DNA from: Homalodisca vitripennis
Lineage: Eukaryota > Arthropoda > Insecta > Hemiptera > Cicadellidae
Direction of reading: 5' to 3'
Length of the DNA: 64,000 bases
NCBI RefSeq assembly: GCF_021130785.1
Contig: NW_025777540.1
Span: 1 to 64,000 of the forward strand
Part shown: positions 23,942 to 64,000 of the stretch, piece by piece
Numbering within the stretch: position 1 is the stretch's first letter
How the letters are laid out: every line of letters starts with the position of its first letter
Program-made: the position numbers and the translations under genes
Notes under the pieces: model-generated
Seen by the model: only the letters and a program-made list of their open reading frames with translations
Databases searched by the model: none
Told to the model about the DNA's origin: nothing

Positions 23942-23976
<35 letters not shown>

Positions 23977-24018
23977 CTATTTTTTTTTTTTTTCTTTGTT
24001 TTTTGTTTTTTTTTTTTT

Positions 24019-24052
<34 letters not shown>

Positions 24053-24105
24053 TTTGTCTCTTTTTTTTTTTTTATTTTTTTTGTTGTTTTTTTTTTTTTG
24101 TTTTT

Positions 24106-24136
<31 letters not shown>

Positions 24137-24268
24137 CTCTTTTTTTTTTTTTTGATGTTTTTTTTTTTTTTTGTTTTTTTTGTTTTTTTCTATTTTTTTT
24201 ATTTTTTTTTTTTTTTTTTTTTTTTTTTATTTTTTTTTTTTTTTTTTTGTTTTTTTTTTTTTTTTCTT

Positions 24269-24313
<45 letters not shown>

Positions 24314-24369
24314 TTTTTTTGTTTTTTTTTTTTTGTTTTTTTTTTTTTTTTTTTTTTTGTTTTTTTTTT

Positions 24370-24460
<91 letters not shown>

Positions 24461-24704
24461 TTCTTTTTTTTTCTTTTTTTTTTTTTTTTTTTTTTTTTTG
24501 TTTTTTTATTTTTTGTTTTTGTTTTTTGTTTTTTTATTTTTTTTTATATTTTTTTTTTGTTTTTTTTATTCTTTTTTTTTTTTTTTTTTTTTTGTTTTTT
24601 TATTATTTTTTTTGTTTTTTTTTTTTTGTGTGTTCTATTCTTTTTTTGTTTTTTGTTTTTTTTTTTTTCCTCATTTTTTTTTTTTTTTATTTCTTTTTTC
24701 TTTT

Positions 24705-24760
<56 letters not shown>

Positions 24761-24789
24761 TTTTGTTTTTTTTTTTTTTTTTTTATTTT
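23744..24789. repeat. ~1.05 kb interrupted poly(T) tract
   Basis: More than nine tenths of the bases are T, with scattered single A, G or C interruptions and uninterrupted T runs of many tens of bases around 24380-24460. All long poly-Phe or poly-Lys frames inside are meaningless. It could be an inflated retroelement poly(A) tail on the minus strand, an expanded homopolymer, or a long-read consensus artefact. It ends abruptly where a plus-strand LINE remnant begins. Confidence 0.95.
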
Positions 24790-27280
24790 GTCTATAAACG
24801 CCATCGTGCATGAGTCACATCGGCGATAATGTGGACATATATTGGTGATCAAAATTTATTTCATTAATGAATGGCCTTCTTTGATAATACACGCTCCAGT
24901 TGGTTTCAAAAGAGTAACTAAACAGCCTGCCCCATGGATCTCAGAATTTATTCGAACACCTTCAGAAGCAAAGAGAATAGAGCTTCCTAAGGCTAAGCGA
25001 TCAAGTTACGTGATGACGGGCTTATATAAAAAATTAAGGAAACAATGTGCAACAACAAATTAGAAATGCCAAATCATGGTTTTACTAACTCTTCCCTTTA
25101 CTAATAAAACAATCTAGCAGAATTTTATGGTCTAAACTGAAAGATCTTGGAGTTGGCAATCCTAACACTTACTCCCATCCCCGGTTTCCCTTAATTCTCG
25201 ATGATATCAACAACTTATTCTTTTGTTTGAGATTCCTGTTTTGATCAGTCTGGGGGCTCAGGAGTATGTCGTCCTGAGCTCGAAGGTGCTACTTTGATAA
25301 ACCTGAGTTTCAGGGCTCTTTCACTCCGGTAACAGAGACAGATGTTTTAAAGTCCTATTAAAGGATTTCCCAGTAACGCAGTCGGGCCGATGGCATTCCT
25401 ATAAGGTTAATAAAAGGAAACTCTTTCCCAGTTACTCTTCCAGACTATCACTGCTAATTTATCATAAATCTCTGGCTACTTCCAATGTTCCCATTTGACA
25501 TGGAAGTCTCTTAGATCGCCCCCTTCCAGAATTGTTCCATCTCCACAAAATCCTTCACAATTCAGGCCAATAAGTATACTCCCTGCTTTATCAAAGTGTT
25601 TGGAGCGGATTGAGTTCATCAGCATTTTTCAATATACCTTGAAAGTAATAACTAATTTTATCAAATTTTCAATCTGGTTTTCGCTCCAACCACAGCACTA
25701 CTACTAGCAACTTCTAAAAATAGTTGATGATATACGCTTGGAATTGATACGAGTCCAGTAACCAATTTTAACCCTTTTCTGACTTTTCAAAGGCTTTTGC
25801 AACTGTGTCTATTATCCCCTTCTCCTCATCAAACTTAGAAGGAAGGTTTCCTCTGATGGGTAGTGTCAAGTGGGTTGAGTCTTATCTTTCGGGACGACGC
25901 CCAGTGTTCAGGTCGGTGGTGAGAAGCAGTCCGAGATGGAGACCAGTCACACGGTGGAGTTCCGCAAGTTCAGTCCTGGGCCACTTTATTTTCACTGTAC
26001 ATCAATGACATTACTACTCAAATTACTCATCCCAATTTTCACTTATATGCAATGACTATACAAATATACCGCCACTTTTCTATAGAAGGGACATACCAAA
26101 CTTTGTGTGACTCTCATGAATTCCGATATTGACGCAGTTACTCACTGGACGTTGAAACATGGACTAAAATTAAAAAAAAAACCCGTAGACAACACTCAGT
26201 GTATTATGATAGGTCATGTCAAAGCTTGTTCCCCGTAAAATTGACTTTACTCTTTACTACGCTCCCAAATAAAAACTAAATGACCAAGATCTAGAATACT
26301 CTTAGAAGTAAAGAATCTAGGACTTATTATTGACAAACACTTAAGATGGACTGAACAGCAGGCTCTTTGATATGTAATAGAGGTCTTTGTGGCGGTGTTC
26401 ACAGCCTCAAGCGGCTGCTTCATATCTACCCAACTCCAGGTTAAAATAATGCTGATCAAAACTCTTGTACTGCCTCACTTCAACTACGGTGACATAGTCC
26501 AGTTAAGACATGACAGTGGAGCTTCAAATAAACTCCAGCGTGCTCAGAACATTTTGCATTAGGTTCAATTTTATAATCTCAGACGTGGATGATCACGTAA
26601 CGCCCTTCTTCAACCAATTTATCCTATAGTTAAAATTACAAGATCTTCGAGACTATCACCACTCATTTCTGTTTGCATCTGCTCTTTAAATACAAATTGT
26701 CCCAGTTATCTTTCAAAAACGACTTTTCAATTTATGTCCTGAAATAAGTGAACGAAGATACAAGGAGGGGTACATCCTTTATTTTGATCTATACCAATTC
26801 ATCGAACAAGCTACCTTAGTAAGACACGCTTTACAGTTTTTCTGCCCTGCCGATTGAGGAATCCCTTACCTATAAACATCAGGAGCCATTGATATATAGT
26901 GCGCGCTCGCTTTGGTGCCGGAGGTCAGGCCTTGATGCTGGGGGCTCAGGGGGTATAGCGGTTGGCGGCTTTGGAATGTGTTACTTTTTACAGGCAAGTG
27001 GAATGCAAGTTAATGAAGTGCATGCTTGTATGTCTTATTAAAGATTTGTAAATTTAATAAAAGTTACATTAGAATTATAGATTTTGTTTTTTATTATTTT
27101 AAAGCTAAGATTCTTTTAATGTTATAAGGTATTAAATAGATTTATTTTATTATACATGTATATTATGTAAGTTTTAATTTTTTACGAGGTTAAGTGGTAG
27201 AGAGGACTTTATAGTCCTAACTTCGCCTCTAATAAAGACATTTTTCATTTCATTTCATTTCATTTCATTTCATTTCAATA
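24790..27280 (+). pseudogene. LINE ORF2 remnant with (CATTT)n tail
   Basis: The plus strand begins mid-ORF2 with KQPAPWISEFI and KKLRKQC, the usual linker before the reverse transcriptase. It continues through heavily shifted palm motifs: a degenerate RPISILPALSKCLERI near 25565-25620, GGVPQ near 25955-25970, LFSLYINDI near 25990-26015, and YAMT at the catalytic YADD position (26046-26057). Thumb fragments follow to about 26.9 kb. The 3' end is a clear CATTT pentamer array at about 27245-27278. It is 5'-truncated and dead. Family: CR1/jockey-like. It starts exactly at the edge of the poly-T tract. Confidence 0.78.
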
Positions 27281-47150: not shown

Positions 47151-48636
47151 ATGGTCTAATAAGGTTTCAATTACATATTTCACCACTGGAACCAGATAAG
47201 AATAGTCGCAATCCAATTTCATATCTATTGAAACTTATTAATATTTATATTAGTACATTGTGAATGGAATCCGTATGTTTTATGAGAAATTGTTCTATGC
47301 TATACAGTTAGATTTTTGAATTGCTACTCTTATCGTAACAAATTATATAAAATAATATATCTGTCATTTAATAACACCAGATTTATAATTATGTATTGAT
47401 AGTGTTCACACTTCGTGGTAACAGAGTAGAAAGAGAGGGTTCACGTATCCAAACAAGTATTTAGATGCTTCGTATTGCATAAATGCATTACTTGTCTTTT
47501 AAAGTATAAACTCCCACGTCATCATTTTATTTGTAACTGTTATGTATAACAAGGTACTAATAAGCAATATACGAAACGTTTTGTAATCCGTGTATGCTTT
47601 TATTGATTCAATTAAACCAGACTATAATGCTGTACTTTATGTTTTTGAGTAAGTATAGTAAATAATTATGTATGACAACCATTTTGAATCTGAGATAATA
47701 TGTATTTGTGAATTTATCCAAAAATACCTTTTCTTTAGAAAAAAAGTTGGCAAAGTTAGAATTTTATATATTTATTCAGTTTAAATAGTAATATTTAACA
47801 GATATTAAACTAAACAAAACAGGAATGTACTTTATGAGACATGTCTTACTTATTTGTACCTGTCACAACATATTAAAAAATATAAGGAGTAACGCATAGC
47901 CAGTATGTGTAAATGATCAAATATTATAATTATATTAATAATATAATTATAATTTTTTTAATACATAATTTACTTGTGGACTTTCTTTAAATAAAATATT
48001 TATCAATCTTGTTATTGTGCTTAATTTACACGGAGTGAAAGTTCTAAGTTCACTTTATAATTTTTATTTACATGTTTGTTGTTTACACATGTTTAGTAAG
48101 AGCCATTTAAAATATTTTATATTTAGTCCTACAGCGGTTTCTAACCATTACAATTGTATGTTGACAAGGTGTTTATGAAACAAGTATTATATTATATTAA
48201 GATGAAAATTTATTCTTCTTTGTATTTTCTCACTAAAGCTATAGACACAAATAGTTTAATACCGATTGTGGATAGAAGTGTAAGTTACTAAATAAATCAT
48301 TCATAGTTTATATTTTTTGTTTATGTACATACAGTCTATTTAATATATAATGGAGTTAATCTAAGAAACCCACATTTAGTAATGATTATTGGAAACTTGG
48401 AAAGGTATTAGGTAGGCCTAATGAAAAGAAAGTCTGTGAATTTAATAATTTTGTATAATGCTTCATCCATGAAAATATATGTGAGTAGTGCTAAATAAAT
48501 AAATAGCTAGTGAGATCCCTATTCAATGACATCGCCAACTGATATCCATTTATGTGCAAGGGAGGAGTTAACACGTAGGAGGTTTCGATAGTGGCATTCC
48601 TTCAGGCATTCATTAGTGTAGACGAGCTGCTGGGAC
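47151..48636. other. AT-rich intergenic sequence downstream of the secreted-protein gene
   Basis: No gene or element recognised. A short AAATAAATAAAT stub lies at 48494-48506. Confidence 0.5.
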
Positions 48637-48962
48637 TTAATATAGTTGTTGACGCATATTTTGTATATTGTATGGGTATGGAAATATTTGATACTGTGGA
48701 TATTGTGGGTATTGACCTCCCGCAGGTTTGCCAACAAACCCTTGACCCATATCACCATAGCCTCCACGGCCATGGCCTATACCTGCGCCTGCATGCACTC
48801 CTAGCAAATTTGCACCGATCCCGAATCCGAAAAGTGAGCCGAGGAACGAAAAGAAACTCCTTTATTCTTTGGGTTTGCTCCGTGTTTCTTTAGTTCTTCT
48901 AAAGTTGGGTTCAAGCTGCTGGATGTTGTGAGAGGTATTGCTATGGAGCTGAAGTCTTCTTC
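48637..48962 (-). CDS. Exon 2 of a small secreted Gly/Tyr/Pro/Gln-rich protein gene
   Basis: On the minus strand an ATTTTCAG acceptor (AG at 48964-48963) opens into EEDFSSIAIPLTTSSSLNPT, then LEELKKHGANPKNKG. A one-base shift near 48846-48860 (a T-rich run) moves the reading into a frame that encodes GFGIGANLLGVHAGAG, then GHGRGGYGDMGQGF, then GGQYPQYPQYQIFPYPYN, with a stop at 48639-48637. The length, 326 bases, is one short of a multiple of three, as a single lost base would give. The composition resembles glycine-rich cuticular, egg-shell or secreted defence proteins; the function is unknown. Exon 1 is at 51657-51716. The shift is either a disabling mutation or an assembly error. Confidence 0.6.
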
Positions 48963-50810
48963 CTGAAAATTATAAATATATACTGTATGTTTATGTACTA
49001 CATAAATATTAATAGGTATTAAAATATTCTAGTCAACATGCTATATTATGTGCTTGAGCGCTATTATCACCTTGTTTTATATAAATATAACTATTGATAC
49101 AATGATCATATATTTTATATTTGCATTATATGGATTCATTTAGTCAATATATCAGGTTCCCTAATAATAAACAAATTCATATTTTTTTCATTTTTGAAAT
49201 AGTACAGAATTAGGACCATGACTATTTCTTGCATTTAACTTTAAAAAATTTTGTTTTCTGATAAAAATATAAATCGCAGGAAACATGTAATATTACATAT
49301 GTAAAAAACATATGTAATAATCGTAGACTTTTCTAAACTGTTTTACTGTTAGATATCGTAAATATTCAGTTATTTTACAATAGATACCTACGTAATTATT
49401 AATCATAATAATTATTATTAATTTATTAAACACCGTAAAATATACGGTACCATATGTATTTTACATCTTTATTAAACATTATTATGACACTATAAAATAC
49501 AGTTTAATATGCAATACATTAATTTTTAGTTCTATTTCACTGACAGACTTTGTCTTTAAACTGTTTAACGAAACGAACGTTGCTCATTGTATAGTTTGGA
49601 AGCACCTTTTATATTTTTTAAAACTTAGATATATGGATATTCCTGTTTGAATGATAGTACCTGAATTTCCATTACCACAAGTACAATTTTAAGAGGCTAA
49701 TAACATCGTTACAATTTTAAATGAATACATAATTCTGCGTACGCATTTTTACGGTTAAGTAAATTATATTGCTTGAGTGGTACGAACAAAAAGGTGATAA
49801 TGTAAGCGTCAATTACTAATTTTGATTTTAACCATTCAAGGTACCTTAGCTGTAACTGATAATACTAGCTGGGCGGTAGTTTCAAAATTGAATTAGTCAT
49901 AGTGAGAATTTGCTCTCTTATTTTAATAACAGAAATACCTTCTTAATTGACATACATCTATTTTGAACAAAAGGATTCATATAAAGTATCTAATTTAAAA
50001 CATATATCCTAAATTACAGTTTCTAATTATGGATTTGATTAGCCAACATGATTTTAGACATTTCGGAATCTTTGTATTTAAAAATGTTAGTAGAATTATT
50101 TTGTAGTTTTGTAACATGCAATGAAGGTAAGTATTGTTAAATGTAATATATGTTTATAACAGTTTAAAAGTAATGTAATGCAATCAAACTGGGATTAGCC
50201 AATAAATGGTACTTCATTATGAGCTCTTTTAAATGTTCGACTCATTTTCAATCCAGTCTAGATATTGAATCTACGGAACAACACAAAATTATTGAACATT
50301 TGGTATAATCATTAAATGATATTCATTTACATAGATATAAATTAAACTCTTAAACACGAAACGACCGTACACTAGATAGAATAATATAAATCTGTTATAT
50401 TATTTTCTATAAAATACCCCAGTTTATATCTATGTACAGAATTTTTACTGTAGACCAGATTGGGAACTCTTATTTATCCTAATATCGTCTCATTTTCTGT
50501 TCACAAGATAATTTTTAAATATTGCAAGCTATTTGATATGTTAATGGATCTTCATGGAAAAACATTAAACTGCCCAATTATAAATTAATAGGGGACTTTT
50601 TCTGTTTTCAAAGTATCTAATTTTTTTTAAATATTTCTGTCACATTGATCATGTACGTTACATAATTATAAATCTCAAATGTAAAAACAATTAATATTTA
50701 ATGGTTACAGCATATAATTTGTATAGGTTTTTAAATAAACCTTTCTAATTAAAAATTTTTATTTACATTTTGTATTTTGGCCACCAAATGTGACGTGAAG
50801 TCACAACCCC

Positions 50811-51050
<240 letters not shown>

Positions 51051-51465
51051 GCTACACATTTGTCAGAAGGCATAAAATTGCAGAATTCCTTAACTATCCT
51101 ATCTACTAACACTAATGGTAATAGTAACGCTAACACTAATTTAGTAGTGAATTTAACCGCAATTAACGATTATGGAATATTTTTCTTTCAAAGATAATAA
51201 ACATTGGTGATTTCCACGTTTTTAAAAATCACTATATTTTTGATGCCAAGTAATTACTTGTTTGTATTTTAAAATTCTTATTCCAAAGACTGTATGCACT
51301 TAAATTTAAAAAATGTCAAATGTTTAGTCCGTTTAGTGAAATTTATTTATATTACACGCTCAAATAAATTATAATATAAATTTCTTGATCACAAAGCATC
51401 AAAATAAACATATTAATATTAAAAAAAACCTACCGTTGTATATTTATTACACAACCCTTGCATAC

Positions 51466-51468
<3 letters not shown>

Positions 51469-51530
<62 letters not shown>
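51469..51530. repeat. (TA)n microsatellite
   Basis: About 30 TA units, followed by ATGTATGTATATATGTATA. Confidence 0.96.
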
Positions 51531-51656
51531 TGTATGTATGTATATATGTATAATTAATAACGTTATATTCTTCAAGTAAATATTAATTTACATTTAAATT
51601 CATAAAACATTAAAAAGCATATCTAACTACATGTGTTATATACTAAATATTGTTAC

Positions 51657-51722
51657 CGTTGTGTCGCTGTGAACAATCGCTACCACAAGGAAGAAACAGA
51701 TAAATTTCTTAAACATAATTTT
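51657..51722 (-). CDS. Exon 1 (signal peptide) of the secreted-protein gene
   Basis: The minus-strand ATG at 51716-51714 begins MFKKFICFFLVVAIVHSDTT, a textbook secretory signal peptide. It ends at a GTAACA donor starting at 51656. A TTGTTACAG acceptor lies six bases before the ATG, implying an upstream non-coding exon. The coding part is 20 codons, phase 0, and joins in frame with exon 2 (starting EEDF). The plus-strand exon at 12453-12518 is its paralogue: same length class, same flanking splice sites and about 75% identical residues. Confidence 0.68.
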
Positions 51723-52915
51723 CTGTAACAAAAACGTAAACATCAGTTCCTGTAACAACTTAAAAGTTAGTTAGTTGGATAGTTGATCCTTTAATGTTTT
51801 AGACCTTTAATGTTTGATTCAAGTAATAATGATATCGTTAACAATTTATAACATAAACTTAAGTTAAATTTATACTTTTATGTGCTCTATAGGATTTCAC
51901 ATGAATGTACCTAGCATGTTTGAAAATTTACTTATTCGGTTATTTATTCGTTGCCATAATGGTTTAATCGTGATATCACCGTTGTGTACCCGGTCGGATA
52001 CACACCCGGCTTTAGTAAAGCGTTTTGTGCGCCCAATGGTGTAAACGTTGCTATGTATTTATAATTATTACGTTTTTATTGTTTTACTGACTTGGTAGTT
52101 TGTTAAATTTGATCCTGTGCTTAAATAATTACCACAGCCTATCGTGTACCCGCCGGGCGCATGTTTGCTTAATGTTTAAGTTAAATTATTATCTTAGGAG
52201 ACCCTTGGATACCTGTAGGAACATTAAAAAACTTAAAATAATTTTGTTGGTCAAAATAGTGGTCTGCAAACATTATATGTTATAATTTTACAGTTAAAGA
52301 AAACAGATTGTTTTAGAAAAGTTTTTGCTATTATTATTGAAAATTCTATGACAAATATAAAAGTCTAGAAATAAACCAAAAAATAATATACCAATAAAAT
52401 AAAATACAGTAGCATATTTGTTATTATTGTTATCATTTTTTCAATTGAAATGTTCTATTTATTTCATTCAATAAGATTTCTTTGCTCTTATTTACCAATA
52501 AAAGTATATTAACACTAACATATAATTTATTTCCATTTACAATAGATAATTTACAAAAATATGTAATTAATAACACCAAATGTTATAACATTCATCTTGG
52601 GAAGATAAATAATTGATTATAGAGCCATAATGCTTTTACCATCGAATAAGTTGACATGTAAAACAATACATAAAATGGTTAATTAAATTTCCATTCTACA
52701 AAAAAATATTATATAAAGCATAAAACTTACCTTATGTGGTGTATATATTCTGTGATCGTCTGAAGCAATACTGAATTTATTCTGAAGTATATCGTCCTAT
52801 TTCTACATAATAAGACATAAATAAATATAGCGTGACAGTTTTGATATTATGAACTCTGACTTTCCATTGTTTTATGCTAATTAGCGTAACCAATAAGTAG
52901 ACCTCGCGCAGAATG
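51723..52915. other. Upstream region of the secreted-protein gene; no other gene seen
   Basis: AT-rich. A duplicate of the TTAAGTTGTTACAGGAA motif, also present at 12.4 kb, lies at about 51745-51762 on the minus strand. Nothing else is recognised. Confidence 0.45.
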
Positions 52916-52920
52916 AGCGC

Positions 52921-53000
52921 TAACATGGGCTCTTATGGAGTTATTTTAACATGGGCTCTTATGGAGTTATTTTAGCATTGTCTCTTATGGGAGATACATT
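52921..53000. repeat. 26-bp tandem duplication
   Basis: The unit TAACATGGGCTCTTATGGAG plus six bases occurs at 52921-52946 and again at 52947-52972. A degenerate third unit follows to about 53000. It marks the boundary between AT-rich DNA on the left and the C-rich region on the right. Confidence 0.9.
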
Positions 53001-55700
53001 TCGGTGTTTCCTAACCACAGACTTCCTATTTTCCGACGACTTATCTCAACCTAGACTTCCTGTTTGTCACACACCTCTTTATCTCTGACTTTCTGTACTG
53101 CTTAACCACCCGTCCACAGGTCCCGTGTCGACGCCTATTGACACTCACCTTTTTGAGTACCTGAGAGTCTTAACACCCGCACCCGCGTATCTGATGGCTC
53201 CTACCGGAGTCCGACACTATCCTACTACCCCCCGTACTCGGAGCCTGGCGTAACGCCCATACCCGGATTTTGACCGCCTAACCTTTACCGGCCATGCACG
53301 ACATATTCCGTCACCCATCTTTTCGAGTACCGGAGTGCATGAAAAAACCGCACCCACATTTCTAACGGCCCCTGCCCAAACATTTCAAATGCCTCCAATA
53401 CTTAGGGCTCTTAACCACATATATTGCCCACACTGTTATTTATAACACTCCACTCCAGGACCTAGCCGCCCATCTATACCCCCCGTCTCTTACAGACCCA
53501 CACCTGAACAGTCCCTCACAGGGTTCCAACTTATACCCAAATCGGTACTCTGATCGCCTACCTCTTATCCTGAATGTCGACATACAAAATTTTAATCGTG
53601 TGCTTTCACCCTGCCGAGACCCTACACTTTTCGATTGCCTCCATTACTCCTACCCGAGCGTATCGCTCATACCCGGATTTTGACCATTTTACAGTCCAAT
53701 GTACCACATAGGCCTGCAATCGCCCGTCTCCTGGACATGCTAAGACCTGCACCTGTATTTCTAATGGTCCCTACAGAAACCTCACACTATCCTATTACCT
53801 CTCATACCTCGGCTCGTAACCACGGATATTGCACATACTATGATTTCTAACTCCCTGACCTTTACGTGTGTATACGCCTACAGCCTCCCACCTCTCTCGT
53901 GTACCCAAGCGTCTTCGGCCCTCATCCGCACCCTGCCGTGGCCCCACACTTTCCACTCCTAGTCAGGCATAAAGCCAATACCCAGATTTTGATCATCTAC
54001 ATTTTACCGACCAATGTACCACATAAGCCTGCAATCGCCCGTCTCCCGGACCTACACCTGCATTTCCAATGGTCGCTACAGAAACCTCACACTAGCCTAT
54101 TACCTCTCATATCTTGGCTCTTAACCACGGATATTGCACATACTACGATTTCTAACTCCCCGACCTTTACATGTGTATACGCCTATAGCCTCTCACCTCT
54201 CTCTCTCGTGTACCCAAGCGTCTTCGGCCCTCATCCGCACCCTACCGAGGCCCCACACTTTCCACTCCTAGTCAGGCATAAAGCCTATACCCAGATTTTG
54301 ATCATCTACATTTTACCGACCAATGTACCACATAGGCCTGCAATAGCCCGTCTCCTGGACATGCTAAGACCTACTTTTCTAACGGATCCTGCAGAGGCTT
54401 CACACTTTCCTATTGTCTCCCATACCTCGACTCTTAACTACGGATATTGCACATACTACGATTTCTAACTCCCCGACCTTTACGCGTGTATGCGCCTATA
54501 GCCTCCCATCTCTTTCGTGTACCCAAGCGTCTTCAGGCCCTCACCCTCACACTGACGGGACAACAACACTTTCCAACTGCCTCCCGTACTCCTACCCAGG
54601 GGTATCACCCATACCCAATTTAGACCACCTACACATTACCGACTAGTATCCACAAAGTCCAACAGGCATCCATATAATATGTCGTACACCACGTCTCTTA
54701 GCTCTTACACATACTCCACGACTCCACACTCTAAAGTGTTTACTACGCGTAGCGTCACATTCGAAAATTGTCTTCCCACCATTAATACCCTGTACTGGTT
54801 CCCACACATATAGTTAACACCTTTACCTTATTAATCTCCATATACGAGTATTTACCGAGCATATCGCACAATCTTAGTTAGCCTTACCTTCGTAGGGTTG
54901 AAACTTGCATTTCGTTCAAATTCTAACATACTGAGGTCCCCATTAAAAAAAACCAGACCTAACACGGCACTCTCATTTTACTGACAAATATTCATACATT
55001 ACCTGAAAGTGTAATGCTGATATTTACCGAGTACTTTCCCAACAAGATATTCTCATCCCGAGGTCCTAGTCTCAAGCTAACAGCTTATAACACGAGGCGT
55101 ACCTTCTGAGCGACTACTATTTGCCGATCAATGCCCGTGCATATGTTTCAATACCTGGACACCTAATGTCTACGAAGTACTTCATATACTCTTATCCCAC
55201 GCAACCCATCACGGGACCCTAATTTCTGTTACCTTTCACTTGGATGTCTATCACTTCATTCCGGGACCCAACTCTCAAGCAGACTTAACCGGTAATTAAA
55301 AGAACCGTATTTCATTATTAACAAAGCACCATACATTTATTTCAACTACTGCTTAGACATTTAGTTTCCATATTAATCAAGTATTTTGTTTTCACTTAAC
55401 CCACGCCTCCCTTTACGGCACTCCAACTTTTTACCACATTAAATCCACCATCACTTTCTAACGGCCAGGCTCTCATTTTCATAATATCAAGCGAGCGTAG
55501 CTTAATACGGAGTACCATCCCATACAATTTAAGCTTTACCGTGTGTAATTATATATGTCGCTTATACTTGGACATCTAAAGACCCATCATACCTCACTCT
55601 GGTTTCCTAGCTGTTCCCTTACTTTAATTTATTTATAAAGAGACGCATACAGAGGTATTAGTCCAATCGTCTCGAGACCGCGTTATACTAATGTTTATAT
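53000..55700. repeat. C-over-G-skewed region with ~310-bp degenerate tandem repeats
   Basis: Composition changes sharply: the plus strand is C-rich and G-poor for about 2.7 kb. Three good repeat units are anchored by GGATATTGCACATACTA at 53824, 54129 and 54442 (periods 305 and 313). A second anchor, CAGATTTTGA(T/C)CA, recurs at about 53670, 53980 and 54291. Degenerate units extend to about 53.1 kb and 54.7 kb. The rest, to 55.7 kb, is similarly skewed but not clearly periodic. A 200-codon plus-strand frame (53866-54468) runs through two units and repeats itself, probably because the repeat lacks stops. It may be satellite DNA or the outer arm of the neighbouring element. Confidence 0.8.
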
Positions 55701-56134
55701 TATAATCTATACTAGCACTTTATGAAATCTCGACCACAGTGACTTACCCATTGCACCGGCTCATGACACTGCTCGTAACGGACAGTTTGCGGTTTGCGGT
55801 TACCTGCATCCTCGGACTCTGATAATTCATTCTCTACAACAATATTAAAACTAATAACTATTATAACATCTTCAGTACAGCACGGGATATTTGCCATCCT
55901 GAATACAGTCGGAATAATACATAGGTACTGCATTCGGTCTGTAATAAGTTTTAATTTTTCTCCCGAGTGTGATGTAAAGAGCTTTAACTTATTTATAGTC
56001 TATTTTCAAAAACGTATACCGCTTCGTATACTTTGAATTTAGTTAATCATACCGGATGCGATGATTGAGGTTTGCGGTTACATGTAAAAACCCAGACGAG
56101 TAACGGTACAGCTGCAACCGCAATTTTTAAGAGA

Positions 56135-56580
56135 CCTCATTGGTCGGAATAAACGCGTCTCTGATTGGTCTAAAATAGCCGCCAAGCACTCTGATTGGTC
56201 GGTGTTCTACACAGTCGGCAGAGATTTCCCTGTCTCGCCAGTCTGGAGGTGGACGTCAAAGAGGTAAGACCTATGTCGCTCTGTTCCTTGACATTGCACA
56301 ACATTGTGTAAAATTATCAAGACAAGAAAACCTCGCTAATTACTAATACAAAATAAATAAAACATTGCTTACCTACCTAGTTACCCAGATATTATTTTTT
56401 AATATATTACTGTTGCAATGGAATCTCAGGCTATTGAAGTGGTCCCAGAGCTCTCATTGGTCGGCTCCCTATAATAGCGGCAACATTCTTCTCTCTCGTC
56501 AGTTTTTCAGTAGACGTCAAAGAGGCAGGACGTGTGTTGAGTGCTCTGCTCAGTGTTATCGAGTGGTTGAATTTTAAATG
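56135..56580 (+). promoter_or_regulatory. Duplicated promoter-like module with reverse CCAAT boxes
   Basis: ATTGGTC (reverse CCAAT) occurs at about 56139, 56163, 56193 and 56456. Two modules, about 56130-56270 and 56450-56550, share the order CATTGGTCGG, AATAGCGGC-like, CGCCAGT/CGTCAGT, GACGTCAAAGAGG. The second is followed by an arthropod initiator-type TCAGT at 56550-56554. The whole block is mirrored in the right arm (about 63360-63810). Confidence 0.45.
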
Positions 56581-56930
56581 CTATATTAACGCTTTCTTAG
56601 AGTGAGTCAGCGGTGTTAGTGTTTTTTATATTTATTAAGTGCTTTTTTTTACTATCATAGTAATTTTATAAAAGTAAATTAGTTTATAGGAGTTTTATTA
56701 CATTTTAAATTTATTAAGTGCTTGTAATTTATTTAGCGATCACAGACATTAAACTCCTTTACACTGTGTGTGTTCTTAAAGTGTTTATACTATTGCTTCT
56801 TTAAATCTAATACAGTGTTATTGTGTTTTTCTGAAAGTGAACAAGTTAATTCGTTGTGTTACTGTGTTTGTATCGTAGTGACAAATCCAACATAGATTTC
56901 ATTCATTTATTTGTGTGTCGTATTTATAAT

Positions 56931-57704
56931 GGTGGTGGTGAAACAAACCACCTCAAACTCAATCAAGAAAAAACAAAATGCATCTGCATCCAAACAAAAC
57001 AAAAGAAAAATTCAAAAAATTCCTGGACTCCTAGCTTGTGCATAGGTGACAGGGAGATGGATGTCACAAAATCAGCAGAACTGCTGGGGGTGGTATTGGA
57101 TGATGGGTTAGACTGGAATGAACAGTTGGTCAAAATTGAAAGCAAATTAGCCAAAGGCGTTTTTGTCCTTCGAAACCTTGCAAAACTCAAAAACAACCAA
57201 TTGGAAAAATCTGTATACCACTGTTTGTTCGAGTCTCACATCTCTTACTCAATCATCCTGTGGGGGGGCTCAGCCTCAAATCTCAAACGAATTTTTACTT
57301 GGCAAAAAAAGGCCATCAGAGCCATGTTGGGCCTGCCTCCCCGCTCACATTGTAGTGATCACTTCAAAAACCTAAAAATATTAACAGTTCCATGTCTATA
57401 TATTTATGAATGTGCCTGGTACATAAAATCTCAAAACTTGGAATTTATAAACAATAGTCATAATTACAATACTAGATTTAAGAACAATTTCTCAATGCAA
57501 CATAGGCTTACTCTTTTTGAAAAAAAAAACCAAATTTCTCTGAACAAAAAATTTATCAAGTTTTTACCACTAATAATAAGAACAATCAATTGTAACAAAA
57601 AATTCAAGAGTGAGCTAAAAAATTTCCTAATAGATCAATCCTTCTATAGCATGGAACAATTTTTTGATCATTGTAAAGGGCTGGAACACCCCACCCTACC
57701 ATAA
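56931..57704 (+). CDS. LINE reverse transcriptase C-terminal fragment (intact frame)
   Basis: The open frame enters from the arm sequence and reads HLKLNQEKTKCICI (the start of the thumb region after the catalytic box). It continues with SAELLGVVLDDGLDWNEQLV, then HCLFESHISYSIILWGG, then IFTWQKKAIRAMLGL, and ends PTLP at 57704. These are standard jockey/CR1-type reverse transcriptase motifs. The catalytic FADD box and everything upstream are missing through 5' truncation. The frame is uninterrupted, fitting a young insertion. It is not a functional enzyme. Confidence 0.88.
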   Translation, partial: GGGETNHLKLNQEKTKCICIQTKQKKNSKNSWTPSLCIGDREMDVTKSAELLGVVLDDGLDWNEQLVKIESKLAKGVFVLRNLAKLKNNQLEKSVYHCLFESHISYSIILWGGSASNLKRIFTWQKKAIRAMLGLPPRSHCSDHFKNLKILTVPCLYIYECAWYIKSQNLEFINNSHNYNTRFKNNFSMQHRLTLFEKKNQISLNKKFIKFLPLIIRTINCNKKFKSELKNFLIDQSFYSMEQFFDHCKGLEHPTLP

Positions 57705-57799
57705 ACACTGTCCCTCCTATGCAGGGCAGTTTTGGACCTGCAGAAGCCCTAAGATGGGCCAACTTCCTGCGGAAACAAAAGTATCAAGTATCAAGTAAG
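56931..57799 (+). mobile_element. 5'-truncated LINE inserted in the left arm
   Basis: This 869-base block is absent from the right arm, whose sequence shows the empty site (around 63011 on the window). It is flanked by TATAAT at 56925-56930 and 57800-57805, one copy of which exists in the right arm. It ends in AAGTATC-type short repeats, a typical LINE tail. It contains the C-terminal reverse transcriptase region. It must postdate formation or last homogenisation of the arms. Confidence 0.93.
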
Positions 57800-57868
57800 T
57801 ATAATCAAGTTTTGTGTAATTTATTTCGGTTATTACATCATACCACAGTGTACTGTAAAAAAGTTTAC

Positions 57869-57880
57869 TGCGCATGCGCA
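57869..57880. promoter_or_regulatory. TGCGCATGCGCA palindrome (NRF-1/Ewg-type site)
   Basis: A perfect 12-base palindrome matching the NRF-1 family consensus (YGCGCAYGCGCR), 127 bases before the polymerase ATG. The identical site lies at 62934-62945 in the right arm. A TATTTAAG box (57892-57899) and TCATTC initiator-like site (57912-57917) follow, so this is a plausible polymerase promoter. Confidence 0.5.
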
Positions 57881-58006
57881 CCTCCTACACTTATTTAAGC
57901 GCGTAACCTTGTCATTCTTAGACGTGACGTTGAACAGTTAACACCCATTCCAAAAGCTTGTATCAAAGCTGCTTGCTGTATTATTTTAGAGCTAATTACA
58001 TGCAAC

Positions 58007-59191
58007 ATGGATCCCGTAAAAGTTTTGCATACCGGTGAAACCTACTGTAGAAGGTTTAGAACATATGGGTCAGAAACAGTTTTCAAGTTTAACCCAGTAC
58101 CCAAAGGAGTGTCCGAACTTGATTGGATTAAAAAGGGTTTTGGGAGTATTGTCGAAAAGGCGAAAGCCGGTACTACCGAATATGACTACCTAGGCTTCAC
58201 TTTAGATTCTCTGAATTTCAGGACTAAAGATTCCGGATATATCGCTTATAGACCTGCAAATCAAGTTTACGGGGATATCATTTGGGATATATTTGGAAAA
58301 CTTATCCAAAGTAATTCGGATTCGATTAAGTCCATGGACACATTTAGAGTTAAGTGCACCCGCACCAATATTCCAGTAGGTAGTGGTAGCCTCAGAAGAC
58401 CAGGTTTGTATAATAACTTTGAAGAAGAATGTAAAGCACGTAAAGGTATCGTAGTTATTAAGAATAGTGATAGTTTGTGTTTGCACCGAGCTATAGTGGT
58501 AGCAAAAGCCTGTGCCAAAAAAGATCCTCAATTCAAGGCTATACGTGAAGACAAAGGTAAGCGACAAACTTTTAGAGCCCAAAAATTGATGACCAAAGCA
58601 GGGGTCCAAATTTCAGAACGAGGAGCGGGGATCCCCGAACTTAATAAATTTCAAGACCACCTCAAAAAGTATAATATTACAGTTTATAATTACGATAATA
58701 AGGGTAGGGACGTATATTTTATCGGCAACAACGAAAGTGCTTTGTACAAAATTAATCTGTTGTATCACGAAGGCCATTATAATGTAATAACTAGCCTAAC
58801 TGCAGCTTTTGCGTACCATTTTTTCTGCGAAGCATGCCATGTCCCTTACGACCACAAAGGTTTTCACAGATGCTCAAATATCTGTCCTGCGTGTCAGACC
58901 CTATCTCCACCTTGTAAAGAGGAGCATGGGGGAATTTTGTGCCCTGACTGTAACATGACCATGAAAAATCAGAACTGTTTTGCGGCTCATAAGAGTGAAC
59001 GTTGTAAGTCCGTAAAAAAATGCTTACAGTGCCAAAGGCTTGTGTTTCTGAACAACCGTAAGTCAAAACATGTGTGCGGTGAAGTTTTTTGCAAAATCTG
59101 TAACGAATTCATGCTCCCAAACCATCAATGTTACATGCGGGTCGACACAAAACAAACCAAAAACCAAAGACTTTCTTTTCATTTTCTTTGA
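58007..59191 (+). CDS. PolB part 1: N-terminal domain and zinc cluster
   Basis: Starts at the ATG at 58007 (MDPVKVLHTGETY). An out-of-frame ATG at 58000 precedes it. Residues ~157-173 read LCLHRAIVVAKACAKKD, a motif recurring before the exonuclease in arthropod Polinton-type PolB proteins. Residues ~270-385 hold many paired Cys/His (FCEACHVPYDHKGFHRC, CPACQTLSPPC, CPDC, CLQC, CKIC), suggesting several zinc ribbons. The first 204 codons lie in the inverted arm and the rest is unique. The frame ends at 59191; a one-base shift in the A-rich stretch before it moves the coding potential into the next frame. Confidence 0.88.
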   Translation: MDPVKVLHTGETYCRRFRTYGSETVFKFNPVPKGVSELDWIKKGFGSIVEKAKAGTTEYDYLGFTLDSLNFRTKDSGYIAYRPANQVYGDIIWDIFGKLIQSNSDSIKSMDTFRVKCTRTNIPVGSGSLRRPGLYNNFEEECKARKGIVVIKNSDSLCLHRAIVVAKACAKKDPQFKAIREDKGKRQTFRAQKLMTKAGVQISERGAGIPELNKFQDHLKKYNITVYNYDNKGRDVYFIGNNESALYKINLLYHEGHYNVITSLTAAFAYHFFCEACHVPYDHKGFHRCSNICPACQTLSPPCKEEHGGILCPDCNMTMKNQNCFAAHKSERCKSVKKCLQCQRLVFLNNRKSKHVCGEVFCKICNEFMLPNHQCYMRVDTKQTKNQRLSFHFL

Positions 59192-60845
59192 TTTAGAGAC
59201 CCGTCAAGATGAAATTTTAACGGAAGAATCAAAAATTCATAAAGTTAACCTTTGTGTTTCTCAACAATTTTGTTGGAAATGTATTAATGGTAAATCTTGT
59301 GAAATGTGCAAAGACCGAACAAAGATCTTTGATAGTGATCCTGTGAATCAATTTATGAATTACGTAATGGAGGAGAGAAAAAAATTCAGAAATATATGTG
59401 TAATGGCTCATAACGGTCAGGGTTTTGATTTTCAATTTCTGTTAAAGTACGTTCTCGAACAAACAAAATTCACTCCAGAGCTAATTATGCGTGGCACTAA
59501 AGTCATTCTTATGGAACTGGATAACGTCAGATTTATCGATTCGCTAAATTATTTCCCCATGGCCCTCTCTGCACTACCCAAAGCCTTTGATCTCCCCCCG
59601 GAGATGAAGAAGGGTTACTTCCCTCATCTATTCAACACTTTGGCAAACCAAAATTATGTAGGCCCCATACCACCCAAGGAGTACTACTGCCCTGAATCCA
59701 TGTTTGAAAAGACTTACAAAGATTTTGAAAATTGGCACAACGACCAACTTAACCAAAATGTAGTTTTTGACTTTCAAAAAGAGTTGGTCGAGTACTGTAT
59801 CTCCGATGTGGAGATACTGGCGCAAGTGTGTATTAAGTTTAGAAACATGTTTTTGAAAGACTGTAATGTAGATCCATTCATGGAAGCCGTCACCATTGCC
59901 AGTGCCTGTAATTTGGTTTTTAGACGGAATTTTCTCAAAGCCAACACTATTGGTCTAGTCCCAAAGAACGGATACCGTATGGTTGATAACCAATCGCCTA
60001 TTGCTTTACAATGGCTGAGCTGGGAGGAAGAACAGCGTAGTGTCCGCATTCAGCATGCGGGGAGGGACAGAGAAGTTAAAATCGAGGGATTAAAAGTAGA
60101 CGGTTTTGACGGAGAACGAATATATGAATTTCAGGGCTGTTATTTCCATGGGTGCCCGAAATGTTTTCCATTTAATAGAGAAGAACCACTCAAAGAGGAC
60201 CCTTCCGACTCCCTGCACTTAAGGTTCGAGAGAACCAAAGCTAAAATGGCTCGTCTCCGAGCATCTGACTATGAAGTTATTGAAATGTGGGAGTGTAAAT
60301 TCAATCATTTAAAGAAAGAACAACAATTGGATTATCTAAATTTTCTCCCCATTCTAAGCACGCTCCCACTTAATCCCAGAGATGCCTTCTTCGGGGGCAG
60401 AACAGGCAATGCAAAATCTTATCACAAGTGCGAGGACGGGGAAACAATTCAGTATGTAGACGTTTGTTCCTTGTACCCGTTTGTCAATAAGTTTTCTCCT
60501 TATGTTTTATCCCATCCAAAAATATATGTAGGGGACAAGGAGTGTAGAGAAAGAGGCATGGAGGCCGAAGGTCTCATGAAATGTAAAGTATTGCCTCCGC
60601 TAAATTTGTACCATCCCGTCCTCCCTACACGTATGAACAATAAATTAATGTTTGTTTTATGCCGTACATGTGGTCTAGAAATGCTAAACACAGACTGTAA
60701 TCATAGCATCGAAGAAAGAGCATTGACAGGGACATGGACAATGCTGGAAATACGCAAGGCTGTAGAAAAAGGCTATACCATTTTAGAAATGTACGAGCTT
60801 TGGGATTATAAAATTATTACTTACGAAGACGGTGGTCTTTTTTAA
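59070..60845 (+). CDS. PolB part 2: exonuclease domain and palm motif A
   Basis: A 591-codon frame overlapping part 1; the conserved reading begins near 59.16 kb, so its nominal start is not a real one. Exo I FFDLETRQDE (acids at ~41 and 43), Exo II AHNGQGFDFQFLL (~113-125) and Exo III YCISDVEIL (~242-250) are all present. A Cys pair motif (CWKCINGKSCEMC) lies between Exo I and II. Motif A YVDVCSLYPFVN has its metal-binding Asp at ~464. The frame closes at 60845 in a T run, after which coding continues in another frame. Confidence 0.92.
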   Translation: MCAVKFFAKSVTNSCSQTINVTCGSTQNKPKTKDFLFIFFDLETRQDEILTEESKIHKVNLCVSQQFCWKCINGKSCEMCKDRTKIFDSDPVNQFMNYVMEERKKFRNICVMAHNGQGFDFQFLLKYVLEQTKFTPELIMRGTKVILMELDNVRFIDSLNYFPMALSALPKAFDLPPEMKKGYFPHLFNTLANQNYVGPIPPKEYYCPESMFEKTYKDFENWHNDQLNQNVVFDFQKELVEYCISDVEILAQVCIKFRNMFLKDCNVDPFMEAVTIASACNLVFRRNFLKANTIGLVPKNGYRMVDNQSPIALQWLSWEEEQRSVRIQHAGRDREVKIEGLKVDGFDGERIYEFQGCYFHGCPKCFPFNREEPLKEDPSDSLHLRFERTKAKMARLRASDYEVIEMWECKFNHLKKEQQLDYLNFLPILSTLPLNPRDAFFGGRTGNAKSYHKCEDGETIQYVDVCSLYPFVNKFSPYVLSHPKIYVGDKECRERGMEAEGLMKCKVLPPLNLYHPVLPTRMNNKLMFVLCRTCGLEMLNTDCNHSIEERALTGTWTMLEIRKAVEKGYTILEMYELWDYKIITYEDGGLF

Positions 60846-61495
60846 CGGATTTTGTAAATAAGTTTCTAAAAATTAAACAGGAGGCATCGGGCTACCCATC
60901 CTGGTGCCTCACAGAAGAGGATAAAGCCGTGTATATTCAAAATTATTATGAGCACGAAGGTGTCAGACTTGACCCTTCCAAAATTGAAAAGAACGGAGGT
61001 CTTCGCTCCCTTGCTAAATTGATGTTAAATTCTTTCTGGGGTAAATTTGGTCAAAGGGAAAATCAGACAAAAACATCAATCATAAGAGACCCTTTTGAAT
61101 ACTTTCAGTTGCTGTCCAACCCTGAAATAGATGTAAATACTACTCAAATTATTAACGATACTGTACTAATTGTGAACTGGCAGCATATTGAAGAAGCCGC
61201 AGAAGCCCTAAGGACAGTGAATGTTGTGGTTGCAGCATTTACAACGTCACATGCCCGATTAAAATTGTACGAACACTTAGAAAAGTTAGGGAGGCAAGTT
61301 CTTTACTATGATACAGACAGTGTCCTTTACGTACACAGGGAGAGTATGCACAAGGTCCCCACAGGGGACTACTTGGGCGAAATGACCGACGAGTTGGCTG
61401 ACTATGGTCCAGGGTCATACATAGTAGAATTTGTTTCCGGAGGCCCCAAGACTTACGCCTATCTTGTCTGGTCAACAATAATAAAAACGCACTAG
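60838..61495 (+). CDS. PolB part 3: palm motifs B and C
   Basis: The coding reading resumes just before the stop of part 2 and continues through 61495 in one frame; there is no true start codon. It has the usual pre-motif-B segment (SGYPSWCLTEEDKAVYI), motif B LMLNSFWGKFGQR (Lys of KLMLNS near 61016, Tyr replaced by Trp as in many protein-primed PolBs), and motif C YYDTDS with acids at 61310 and 61316. The downstream GGPKTYAY segment is the conserved C-terminal GPK(N/T)YAY motif. A shift near 61470 ends the frame. Confidence 0.9.
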
Positions 61496-61759
61496 TTGAA
61501 GTTTGTAAAATAAAAGGCCTTACTCTAAATTTAAAAACTAGCGAAAAATTAAATGTCGAAACATTGAAAGCATTAGTTTCTGAGTAATTCATTTGACTCA
61601 GTGGACATAGAAGAGAACAGAATAAGACGAACCAAGGACAAAGACATTGTTACAGTCAAAGAAACAAAGTCTTTTTAAATTACAGGGCCCAAAAAGAGAC
61701 TCGAAGGACCCTACGATACTGTACCGTTTGGATTTAAGAAACAAAAATTAACACTCTAA
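61496..61759 (+). pseudogene. PolB C-terminal tail, frameshifted
   Basis: After the GGPKTYAY motif, frame-shifted reading gives VCKIKGLTLNLK, then IEENRIRRTKDKDIVTVKET and, beyond a TAA at 61675-61677, GPYDTVPFGFKKQKL with a stop at 61757-61759. These match the normal C-terminal layout of such polymerases (KGITLN-type motif and a basic tail). Two frame breaks and one stop occur within 260 bases. Confidence 0.75.
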
Positions 61760-62194
61760 CATGTTTAAAAAACTACATTTTCACCAATCACAACGTTAAA
61801 ATTTCATTACAAATCCTGAGACATACATAGAGAGAGAGATTAAATGTAATTATAACCCACCACATCCGTTGGTTGTGATCGAACGTTCGTTAAACCGTTT
61901 ACTTCAGATGTGTACTAGTATTGAATTATGTTATGAGAGCTGACAACGAGTAAAAATTTTAAATTATTTTATTATACAGGTATTTCAATTACGTACAAAA
62001 GAACTTTTTAAATACTAGATAATTGTACTGTATTATTACAGCCATTACATATAATTTTTGCACTCCAGACCCTTCTTTGGGTGGTTGGCCGAAAGTGCAA
62101 AATACAAATGTTTTGAGTGTATATCTGCCCCGTCATCTTTACCTTCAAATGTCACGTAAGTGTGAATGTTTGATCACCCTCGCGTCAAGGGAGC
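61760..62194. other. Unique spacer between PolB and the right arm
   Basis: 435 bases with no coding potential that I can support. It contains a CGAACGTTCG palindrome at about 61880-61889. The minus-strand frame at its right edge is the run-out of the antisense N-terminal copy. If the element were a complete Polinton, integrase and capsid genes would be expected in the core, but there is no room for them here. Confidence 0.6.
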
Positions 62195-62810
62195 TTCTGA
62201 AATTTGGACCCCTGCTTTGGTCATCAATTTTTGGGCTCTAAAAGTTTGTCGCTTACCTTTGTCTTCACGTATAGCCTTGAATTGAGGATCTTTTTTGGCA
62301 CAGGCTTTTGCTACCACTATAGCTCGGTGCAAACACAAACTATCACTATTCTTAATAACTACGATACCTTTACGTGCTTTACATTCTTCTTCAAAGTTAT
62401 TATACAAACCTGGTCTTCTGAGGCTACCACTACCTACTGGAATATTGGTGCGGGTGCACTTAACTCTAAATGTGTCCATGGACTTAATCGAATCCGAATT
62501 ACTTTGGATAAGTTTTCCAAATATATCCCAAATGATATCCCCGTAAACTTGATTTGCAGGTCTATAAGCGATATATCCGGAATCTTTAGTCCTGAAATTC
62601 AGAGTATCTACAGTGAAGCCTAGGTAGTCATATTCGGTAGTACCGGCTTTCGCCTTTTCGACAATACTCCCAAAACCCTTTTTAATCCAATCAAGTTCGG
62701 ACACTCCTTTGGGTACTGGGTTTAAACTTGAAAACTGTTTCTGACCCATATGTTCTAAACCTTCTACAGTAGGTTTCACCGGTATGCAAAACTTTTACGG
62801 GATCCATGTT
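62174..62810 (-). pseudogene. Antisense duplicate of the PolB N-terminus in the right arm
   Basis: The minus strand from the ATG at 62810-62808 repeats the first ~204 codons of PolB. An extra A near 62724 puts the first ~30 codons out of frame with the rest. The remaining part stays open to the arm edge at 62195 and then runs seven codons into unrelated sequence before stopping (62174). It lacks zinc, exonuclease and polymerase domains, so no enzyme is possible. It is a by-product of the arm boundary falling inside the gene. With the shared promoter sequence it could still be transcribed inward toward the polymerase. Confidence 0.85.
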
Positions 62811-64000
62811 GCATGTAATTAGCTCTAAAATAATACAGCAAGCAGCTTTGATACAAGCTTTTGGAATGGGTGTTAACTGTTCAACGTCACGTCTAAGAAT
62901 GACAAGGTTACGCGCTTAAATAAGTGTAGGAGGTGCGCATGCGCAGTAAACTTTTTTACAGTACACTGTGGTATGATGTAATAACCGAAATAAATTACAC
63001 AAAACTTGATTATAAATACGACACACAAATAAATGAATGAAATCTATGTTGGATTTGTCACTACGATACAAACACAGTAACACAACGAATTAACTTGTTC
63101 ACTTTCAGAAAAACACAATAACACTGTATTAGATTTAAAGAAGCAATAGTATAAACACTTTAAGAACACACACAGTGTAAGGGAGTTTAATGTCTGTGAT
63201 CGCTAAATAAATTACAAGCACTTAATAAATTTAAAATGTAATAAAACTCCTATAAACTAATTTACTTTTATAAAATTACTATGATAGTAAAAAAAAGCAC
63301 TTAATAAATATAAAAAACACTAACACCGCTGACTCACTCTAAGAAAGCGTTAATATAGCATTTAAAATTCAACCACTCGATAACACTGAGCAGAGCACTC
63401 AACACACGTCCTGCCTCTTTGACGTCTACTGAAAAACTGACGAGAGAGAAGAATGTTGCCGCTATTATAGGGAGCCGACCAATGAGAGCTCTGGGACCAC
63501 TTCAATAGCCTGAGATTCCATTGCAACAGTAATATATTAAAAAATAATATCTGGGTAACTAGGTAGGTAAGCAATGTTTTATTTATTTTGTATTAGTAAT
63601 TAGCGAGGTTTTCTTGTCTTGATAATTTTACACAATGTTGTGCAATGTCAAGGAACAGAGCGACATAGGTCTTACCTCTTTGACGTCCACCTCCAGACTG
63701 GCGAGACAGGGAAATCTCTGCCGACTGTGTAGAACACCGACCAATCAGAGTGCTTGGCGGCTATTTTAGACCAATCAGTGACACGTTTATTCCGACCAAT
63801 GAGGTCTCTTAAAATTGCGGTTGCAGCTGTACCGTTACTCGTCTGGGTTTTTACATGTAACCGCAAACCTCAATCATCGCATCCGGTATGATTAACTAAA
63901 TTCAAAGTATACGAAGCGGTATACGTTTTTGAAAATAGACTATAAATAAGTTAAAGCTCTTTACATCACACTCGGGAGAAAAATTAAAACTTATTACAGA
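62195..64000 (-). repeat. Right inverted arm of the polymerase element (truncated by window end)
   Basis: The reverse complement of the left arm without the LINE insertion. Differences from the left arm: substitutions near 56155, 56161, 56757, 58202 and 58207 (left coordinates), one extra T in the left arm near 56125, and one extra A in the right arm near 62724. That gives about 99.7% identity over 1806 positions. The repeat still matches perfectly at base 64000, so it continues beyond the window. Confidence 0.96.

What the first reader, a model, noticed from the sequence alone, without database searches (positions are those of the whole stretch)
55938..64000. Polymerase-only long-inverted-repeat element in an insect genome
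Seen: two inverted arms of at least 1.8 kb around a 3.6 kb core that codes only for a family B DNA polymerase with exonuclease and palm motifs. Known: Polintons/Mavericks and adintovirus-like elements pair such a polymerase with integrase, ATPase, protease and capsid genes; linear plasmids (invertrons) have inverted ends and PolB. Inference: this may be a distinct minimal self-replicating element, or a strongly deleted Polinton relative. No partner gene is visible on either side within the window.
Basis: partly seen in the sequence, partly recalled or inferred. Interest (0 to 1): 0.88.

Follow-up and report, generated by a model that had tools for sequence, protein, structure and literature searches.

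The report
Palindromic Polinton with two polymerase genes
This stretch is a broken copy of a roughly 21,000-base virus-like mobile element in a leafhopper genome (likely the glassy-winged sharpshooter) whose long copies are palindromes holding the same DNA polymerase gene twice and no recognisable integrase; it likely copies itself with that polymerase and would be inserted by an integrase borrowed from the ordinary Polintons that also live in this genome.

Summary
The inverted arms are real, but the window shows part of the object. The element runs from window 52896 to contig position 67043 (14.1 kb): a deleted copy with a frame-broken polymerase gene and an insertion in its left arm. Long copies elsewhere in this 2.3-Gb genome (likely Homalodisca vitripennis) are about 21 kb and palindromic: two ~10.5-kb arms meeting at a 13-base loop (axis shared by 17 of 36 loci) or at a ~361-base centre (9 of 36). 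Each arm holds one 1,248-codon terminal-protein/vOTU/PolB gene; 36 of 37 scored genes lack stops; dN/dS is 0.05-0.10 in four usable pairs. Ends are AG..CT, and 19 of 24 loci have exact, mutually different 6-bp target duplications, so assembly folds do not explain the family. No integrase, ATPase or capsid gene was found in the arms; pieces of canonical Polintons with these genes occur in the same genome. Best reading: a Polinton lost its integrase-to-capsid block, became an inverted dimer, and spreads as a polymerase-bearing palindromic satellite, replicated by its own protein-primed polymerase and likely inserted in trans. Architecture is shown; replication and trans-integration are inferred. 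Ten searches of open papers found no such element.

The parts
47206..52895 (.). Host flank mirrored beyond the right end (contig 67044-72666); not part of the element
   Evidence: 97.0% over 5718 columns, 48 mismatches and 123 gap positions; no 6-bp direct duplication at this insertion
52896..58618 (+). Left arm as mirrored in the window copy, starting 5'-AGTAGACCTC; outer noncoding part plus start of the PolB gene
   Evidence: Eight ends of other copies stop at the same base; mirrored by 62195-67043
53685..54550 (+). Tandem array, 309-bp unit, 2.8 copies, inside the outer arm
   Evidence: searches show related arrays in other copies
56931..57799 (+). 869-bp retroelement-like insertion in the left arm only, flanked by TATAAT (56925-56930 and 57800-57805); 282-aa ORF without a Pfam match
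   Evidence: 'retroelement-like' is my reading of the ORF and tail, not a database match
58007..59191 (+). PolB ORF piece 1: terminal-protein-like domain (invariant S102), vOTU-like domain (D155, C158, H257), Cys/His-rich region
   Evidence: alignment A2 of 24 sequences; no Pfam match of its own; domain names follow PMC11071308 sections 6, 7, 9, the assignment is mine
59070..60845 (+). PolB ORF piece 2 in another frame: exonuclease, Vsr-like insert, first palm motif
   Evidence: PF03175 E 4e-34; profile A1 of 17 relatives matches Vsr endonuclease 1odg E 1.9e-6 and phi29 polymerase 1xhx E 4e-5
60929..61495 (+). PolB ORF piece 3: later palm motifs incl. YYDTDS (motif names recalled)
   Evidence: PF03175 E 7e-9; the open frame of L018 ends at the equivalent of about 61760
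62195..62199 (.). Deletion junction: arm-inner sequence joined to the inverted arm at 58618 with about 4-5 bp shared
62195..64000 (-). Right arm, continuing to contig position 67043

Best explanation
The window holds a deleted, frame-broken copy of a Polinton-derived element whose ~21-kb copies are palindromes with one 1,248-codon terminal-protein/vOTU/PolB gene per arm and no recognisable integrase or capsid gene; it likely replicates as a protein-primed linear or hairpin DNA with its own polymerase and is likely integrated by the integrase of canonical Polintons in the same genome. Inferred origin: an ancestral Polinton lost the block from integrase to capsid and, by strand fold-back during strand-displacement synthesis, became a tail-to-tail inverted dimer. 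Every end is then the same origin, and a displaced single strand would fold into one long hairpin that the polymerase can copy round. Shown: architecture (piece by piece, on several copies), ends, target duplications, intact genes, purifying selection. Inferred: extrachromosomal replication, hairpin intermediate, trans-integration, copy-back as the birth event. The window copy lost about 8.1 kb spanning the axis and most of the second polymerase gene, before or after insertion.
For: Palindrome: L018, the middle of one copy, is 99.85% self-complementary over 8,865 columns without gaps, turning at a 13-nt loop. 34 of 36 loci from the inner-region search have inverted arms: 27 in the table, 7 more on fetching. 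Real insertions: 398 ends, reversed control 0; 20 of 30 facing pairs among the 100 listed ends span 20.2-22.8 kb; 6-bp TSD in 17 of 20 pairs chosen from those 30, plus C4501 and C7:57.37. Genes: 36 of 37 scored PolB places without stop, 28 of 37 in 14 inverted pairs. Selection: L018 vs L021 36 syn/501 sites, 8 nonsyn/1953, dN/dS 0.054; the other usable pairs 0.048, 0.090, 0.097 (pairs share sequences). Arms within a copy mostly differ by 0.06-0.4%, copies by about 1-2% or 3-6.6% according to region. Helpers: pieces of canonical Polintons with rve (E 1.3e-7, 0.3 bits under Pfam's cut-off), Pox_A32, double-jelly-roll capsid and PLA2-like genes. Arm-inner stretches match their PolB-integrase spacer (79% over 132 bp) and right-end region (81% over 253 bp).
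Against: No read, episome or transposition was seen. No canonical Polinton with the same ends was found: none of 60 PLA2 places (of 150 scored) lies within 25 kb of the 100 listed ends of 398, and the canonical family whose right end I read ends ...GTCT with otherwise different letters. 5 of 24 loci lack an exact TSD. Arms are not always closest to each other: C7:57.37 arms are shifted by a repeat unit and differ at 36 of 2235 columns inward of it, and the C3777 left arm is closer to C6886 (0.24%) than to its own right arm (0.38%). A further match, inner 4-89 to the right-end region of L040 (80% over 86 bp), does not fit simple collinearity. The 164-aa ORF resembles the terminal-protein domain but lacks the invariant Ser and shows weak constraint (4 syn, 6 nonsyn).
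Confidence: 0.62

Rival explanations
1. The palindromes are assembly folds: reads or haplotypes folded back at ordinary Polintons.
For: In the window and at C8:82.77 host flank is mirrored too and no TSD is present; the window flank is more diverged (97.0%) than its element part (99.7%), which would fit two haplotypes stitched head to head.
Against: 19 of 24 loci have exact 6-bp duplications, all different; 17 loci share one axis and 9 another, which random folds would not give; arms differ by substitutions.
Confidence: 0.05
2. The element is fully autonomous: its polymerase polypeptide, through the linked terminal protein or the Vsr-like nuclease insert, also performs integration.
For: No integrase found in the arms yet insertion is precise; the PolB profile carries a Vsr-like nuclease match.
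Against: The insert is in the profile of 17 insect and other relatives, and a canonical Polinton PolB (L039) aligns along residues 236-1247, so it is not special to the palindrome; integrase-bearing Polintons are present. Borrowing the integrase is simpler.
Confidence: 0.15
3. A satellite virus: the palindrome is replicated by its own polymerase and also packaged in capsids of the canonical adintovirus-like Polintons, like a defective interfering genome.
For: Capsid, ATPase and PLA2-like genes are present in the same genome, the PLA2-like gene at 150 scored places; one canonical right-end region is 97-100% alike at 35 places.
Against: No particle, packaging signal or horizontal spread was tested. 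Not exclusive of the best explanation.
Confidence: 0.2
4. Host inverted or segmental duplication of ordinary deleted Polintons made the palindromes.
For: Mirrored flanks at two loci.
Against: Different TSDs at 19 loci and one modal length near 21 kb.
Confidence: 0.03

Closest known systems
Polinton/Maverick elements and adintoviruses
   Same: PolB of about 1,250 aa with terminal-protein and vOTU domains (PMC11071308 sections read), 5'-AG..CT-3' ends and 6-bp TSD (recalled as Polinton features, observed here).
   Different: Palindromic; polymerase gene twice; no integrase, ATPase, protease or capsid gene found. Polinton-like viruses of Oxyrrhis have TIRs of 232-858 bp (PMC12721341 passages).
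Hairpin and palindromic deletion derivatives of yeast killer plasmid pGKL1 (recalled, Kikuchi 1985; not held)
   Same: Protein-primed linear replicon turned into a hairpin or inverted dimer.
   Different: Those are cytoplasmic plasmids that, as I recall, need the parent for the polymerase; here the polymerase is kept and copies are chromosomal with TSDs.
Symmetric adenovirus recombinants (recalled; search found nothing)
   Same: Both ends replaced by the same end, tail to tail, by copy-back.
   Different: Defective laboratory genomes, not an inherited chromosomal family.
Bidnaviruses (abstract in listing; passage)
   Same: Polinton-type PolB in a short linear genome.
   Different: They combine it with parvovirus-derived genes; none found here.

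Membership tests
Polinton/Maverick | Protein-primed PolB of Polinton type | tested here: met
   PF03175; 71-79% to PolB pieces of canonical Polintons
Polinton/Maverick | 5'-AG..CT-3' ends with 6-bp TSD (feature recalled) | tested here: met
   19 of 24 loci
Polinton/Maverick | rve integrase gene within the element | tested here: not met
   ORF lists of arm pieces; 10 short arm ORFs without a Pfam match at cut-off; not every listed ORF was scanned and introns were not modelled
Polinton/Maverick | ATPase, protease and capsid genes | tested here: not met
   same calls; ATPase and capsid present in canonical pieces, protease there by motif only, without a Pfam match
Polinton/Maverick | Short TIRs around a unique interior | tested here: not met
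   arms meet at the axis
pGKL1-type hairpin plasmid | Hairpin or inverted-dimer DNA (recalled) | tested here: met
   as sequence only
pGKL1-type hairpin plasmid | Extrachromosomal linear DNA with 5' terminal protein | not testable with these tools
   needs native DNA
Bidnavirus | Parvovirus-like genes beside PolB | tested here: not met
   no such match among the arm ORFs scanned

The most novel reading that the evidence does not exclude
A self-replicating hairpin transposon: a defective, copy-back virus genome that became an inherited, selected, genome-wide family (398 ends) keeping only replication (terminal protein plus polymerase, twice) and living off the integrase, perhaps also the capsids, of its Polinton parents. 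It would be the first chromosomal family whose entire genome is a palindrome under selection for its own polymerase.
Probability: 0.5. Interest if true: 0.92.

Novelty: new variant of a known kind. Interest (0 to 1): 0.85.

Why it matters
If true, a class of molecule known (from recall) as laboratory defective viruses and yeast hairpin plasmids exists as a heritable, multi-copy, young element in an animal. It makes the question of how 21-kb palindromes survive and are copied in an animal genome directly testable, and it separates two Polinton functions, replication and integration, into different partners in one genome.

Tried and rejected
Rejected: a unique deletion of a full Polinton (other copies are palindromes); a linear plasmid or bidnavirus insertion (TSDs and ends). 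Led nowhere: viral-contig scans with PolB gave no relative; the PF00770 search was silent in own and control genomes, so it shows nothing; the PF04665 genome search did not complete; the right end of the L040-type canonical Polinton was not reached (follow-up did not complete). C4723 and C5359 stay unresolved: an 86-base fold-back, then other sequence in the 3-kb C5359 piece.

In one search two of six pairs were set aside because a frame is broken (L018-L022, 17 codons; L019-L024, 145 codons, dN/dS 0.71 on 6 changes). In one search the C7:57 left arm is out of register by a repeat unit (14-16% to all others) and is left out of the range given. In one search five of eleven arm extractions failed on coverage. 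By strict match C4:199.71 has no TSD, though TACTCT stands 3 bases off.
Full report
Observation. The inverted arms exist and are far beyond chance: 989/993 and 817/820 identical columns. The window cuts the object. Extending the contig by 9 kb shows that the mirror continues for 8.7 kb past the window edge. Comparison with other copies shows that only part of this is the element. Eight ends of other copies stop at the equivalent of window 52896, with 5'-AGTAGACCTC, and the mirrored end lies at contig position 67043. The element in the window is therefore 14,148 bp. Outside it a further 5.7 kb of flank is mirrored at 97.0%, against 99.7% for the adjacent element part. I cannot tell whether that is a real inverted duplication or an assembly fold.

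The window copy is broken. Its polymerase lies in three ORFs in frames 2, 0 and 2. An 869-bp insertion with TATAAT on both sides sits in the left arm only. The arm-inner sequence jumps at 62195-62199 into the inverted arm at 58618, with about 4-5 shared bases. Relative to long copies this removes the axis and most of the second polymerase gene, about 8.1 kb by subtraction.

Host. A Homalodisca vitripennis protein (P0007) lies on a contig of 211,258,354 bases, the exact length of contig C3 of this genome. The three database relatives of the 164-aa ORF are H. vitripennis proteins, 95-96% identical over 95%, 79% and 46% of it. I infer the species.

Long copies are palindromes. L018, the middle of the copy on C4502, is self-complementary over 8,865 columns with 13 mismatches and no gap, turning at a 13-nt loop. 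A search with the inner 2.27 kb scored 40 of 1,249 candidates and listed 87 matches; 63 of these, typed into a script, fall into 36 loci. Of these, 27 show inverted pairs in the table, some of them asymmetric. Six of the nine singles proved palindromic and C3315 inverted with a deletion. C4723 and C5359 are unresolved. Seventeen loci share the same axis (gap 7-8). Nine share a different, about 361-base quasi-palindromic centre. The palindrome was followed piece by piece on several copies; no single copy was read end to end.

They are insertions. The end pattern (up to 2 mismatches) occurs 398 times (196 + 202), with 0 for the reversed control. Among the 100 ends that the call listed, 30 facing pairs lie within 35 kb, and 20 of them span 20.2-22.8 kb, median 21.0 kb; ten are shorter or longer, from 1.1 to 31.4 kb. 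Of 20 of those 30 pairs whose flanks I read, 17 have an exact 6-bp duplication. C4501 and C7:57.37 add two; C8:82.77 and the window have mirrored flanks and none. That is 19 of 24, all 19 hexamers different.

Genes. A search with the 1,248-codon frame of L021 scored 37 places of 3,292 first-look candidates: all full length, 98-100% identical, 36 without a stop, 28 of them in 14 inverted pairs. Of six class-B pieces L019-L024, four have the intact frame. Synonymous changes far outnumber amino-acid changes between copies relative to sites (dN/dS 0.048, 0.054, 0.090, 0.097 in four usable pairs of six, which share sequences), so the polymerase was likely under selection while the family spread. 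Other ORFs in the arms are short. Ten of them have no Pfam match at a curated cut-off; two weak sub-threshold hits (E 0.05 and 0.09) mean nothing. The 164-aa ORF aligns to the N-terminal domain of PolB (pairwise E 2e-4; profile comparison probability 91%) but lacks its invariant Ser and shows little constraint.

Polymerase anatomy. PMC11071308 (sections 6, 7 and 9 read) reports that polinton polymerases start with a terminal-protein domain, then a vOTU protease domain. In alignment A2 of 24 sequences, S102, D155, C158 and H257 of the window ORF are invariant, which fits a linking Ser and a vOTU Cys/His pair; that assignment is mine, and no structure could be predicted. A profile of 17 relatives matches Vsr endonuclease and phi29 polymerase chains.

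Helpers and origin. A PLA2-like piece of a Macrosteles relative (PF08398) has 150 scored matches of 6,168 candidates here. Pieces beside six of them, each from a different insertion, hold between them PolB, integrase, ATPase and capsid genes. Tested with Pfam were the L039 integrase (rve, 32.3 bits against a cut-off of 32.6), the L039 ATPase (Pox_A32, over cut-off) and the L038 and L040 capsid genes (double jelly roll, over cut-off); the rest is by eye. One right-end region is 97-100% alike at 35 places of the 40 candidates scored. The palindrome's PolB is 71-79% identical to the PolB pieces. The stretch after its PolB matches their PolB-integrase spacer (79% over 132 bp), and a stretch nearer its axis matches their right-end region past the capsid genes (81% over 253 bp). 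A third match (inner 4-89 to that right-end region, 80% over 86 bp) does not fit this order. On balance this fits loss of the block from integrase to capsid before or with the inverted dimerisation.

Mechanism. If both ends are the same protein-primed origin, a displaced strand of a palindrome can fold into a single hairpin with one open end, be copied through the loop, and give back the palindrome. Mismatch repair in the hairpin could keep the arms alike. Arms within a copy differ by 1/1705, 2/1688 and 3/1703 in the outer part, by 9/3219 and 8/3775 further in, and by 4/2100 and 8/2099 in a middle stretch. Between copies the outer part differs by 3.05-6.6%, apart from C7:57 right with C3315 (0.60%) and the neighbouring C8 ends (0.06-0.12%), and the middle stretch by 1.2-2.1%, apart from C6886 with C3777 (0.24% and 0.62%). 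C7:57.37 is an exception within a copy. Integration in trans is the simplest source of the 6-bp duplications but is inferred; no donor with the same ends was found.

Novelty. Ten literature searches listed no paper on a palindromic Polinton; most subscription papers are not held. Of the listed papers I saw listings; of PMC11071296, PMC3671162, PMC12368964 and PMC12721341 passages only. The yeast hairpin plasmids and symmetric adenovirus recombinants are recalled analogues.

Noticed in passing
window 23745-24789: A run of about 1,045 bases with 82% match to poly-T, which goes with an AT skew of -0.5 at 24001-26000.
   Followed up: no
window 50813-51048: (AC)n array of 118.5 copies, 98% match, in the mirrored flank.
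   Followed up: no
PolB alignment A1, profile positions 400-474; window 59070-60845: Polymerases of this clade carry a Vsr-endonuclease-like insert between exonuclease and palm; role unknown.
   Followed up: partly
L016 (C8:82.76 Mb): Two palindrome copies lie 4.2 kb apart, both with AATTGT at the inner junctions, and 0.6 kb of flank is mirrored on the far side.
   Followed up: partly
G000:C1:7979270-7980350: A 1.08-kb pair of the same ends, perhaps a miniature derivative.
   Followed up: no
L018:4379-4633 and L021:7565-7819: An 84-aa ORF of unknown kind shared by both subfamilies with 3 synonymous and 2 amino-acid changes.
   Followed up: partly
L037, L038, L040: PLA2-like genes of canonical Polintons are very numerous in this genome (150 places scored of 6,168 candidates) and one canonical right-end region is 97-100% alike at 35 places.
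   Followed up: partly
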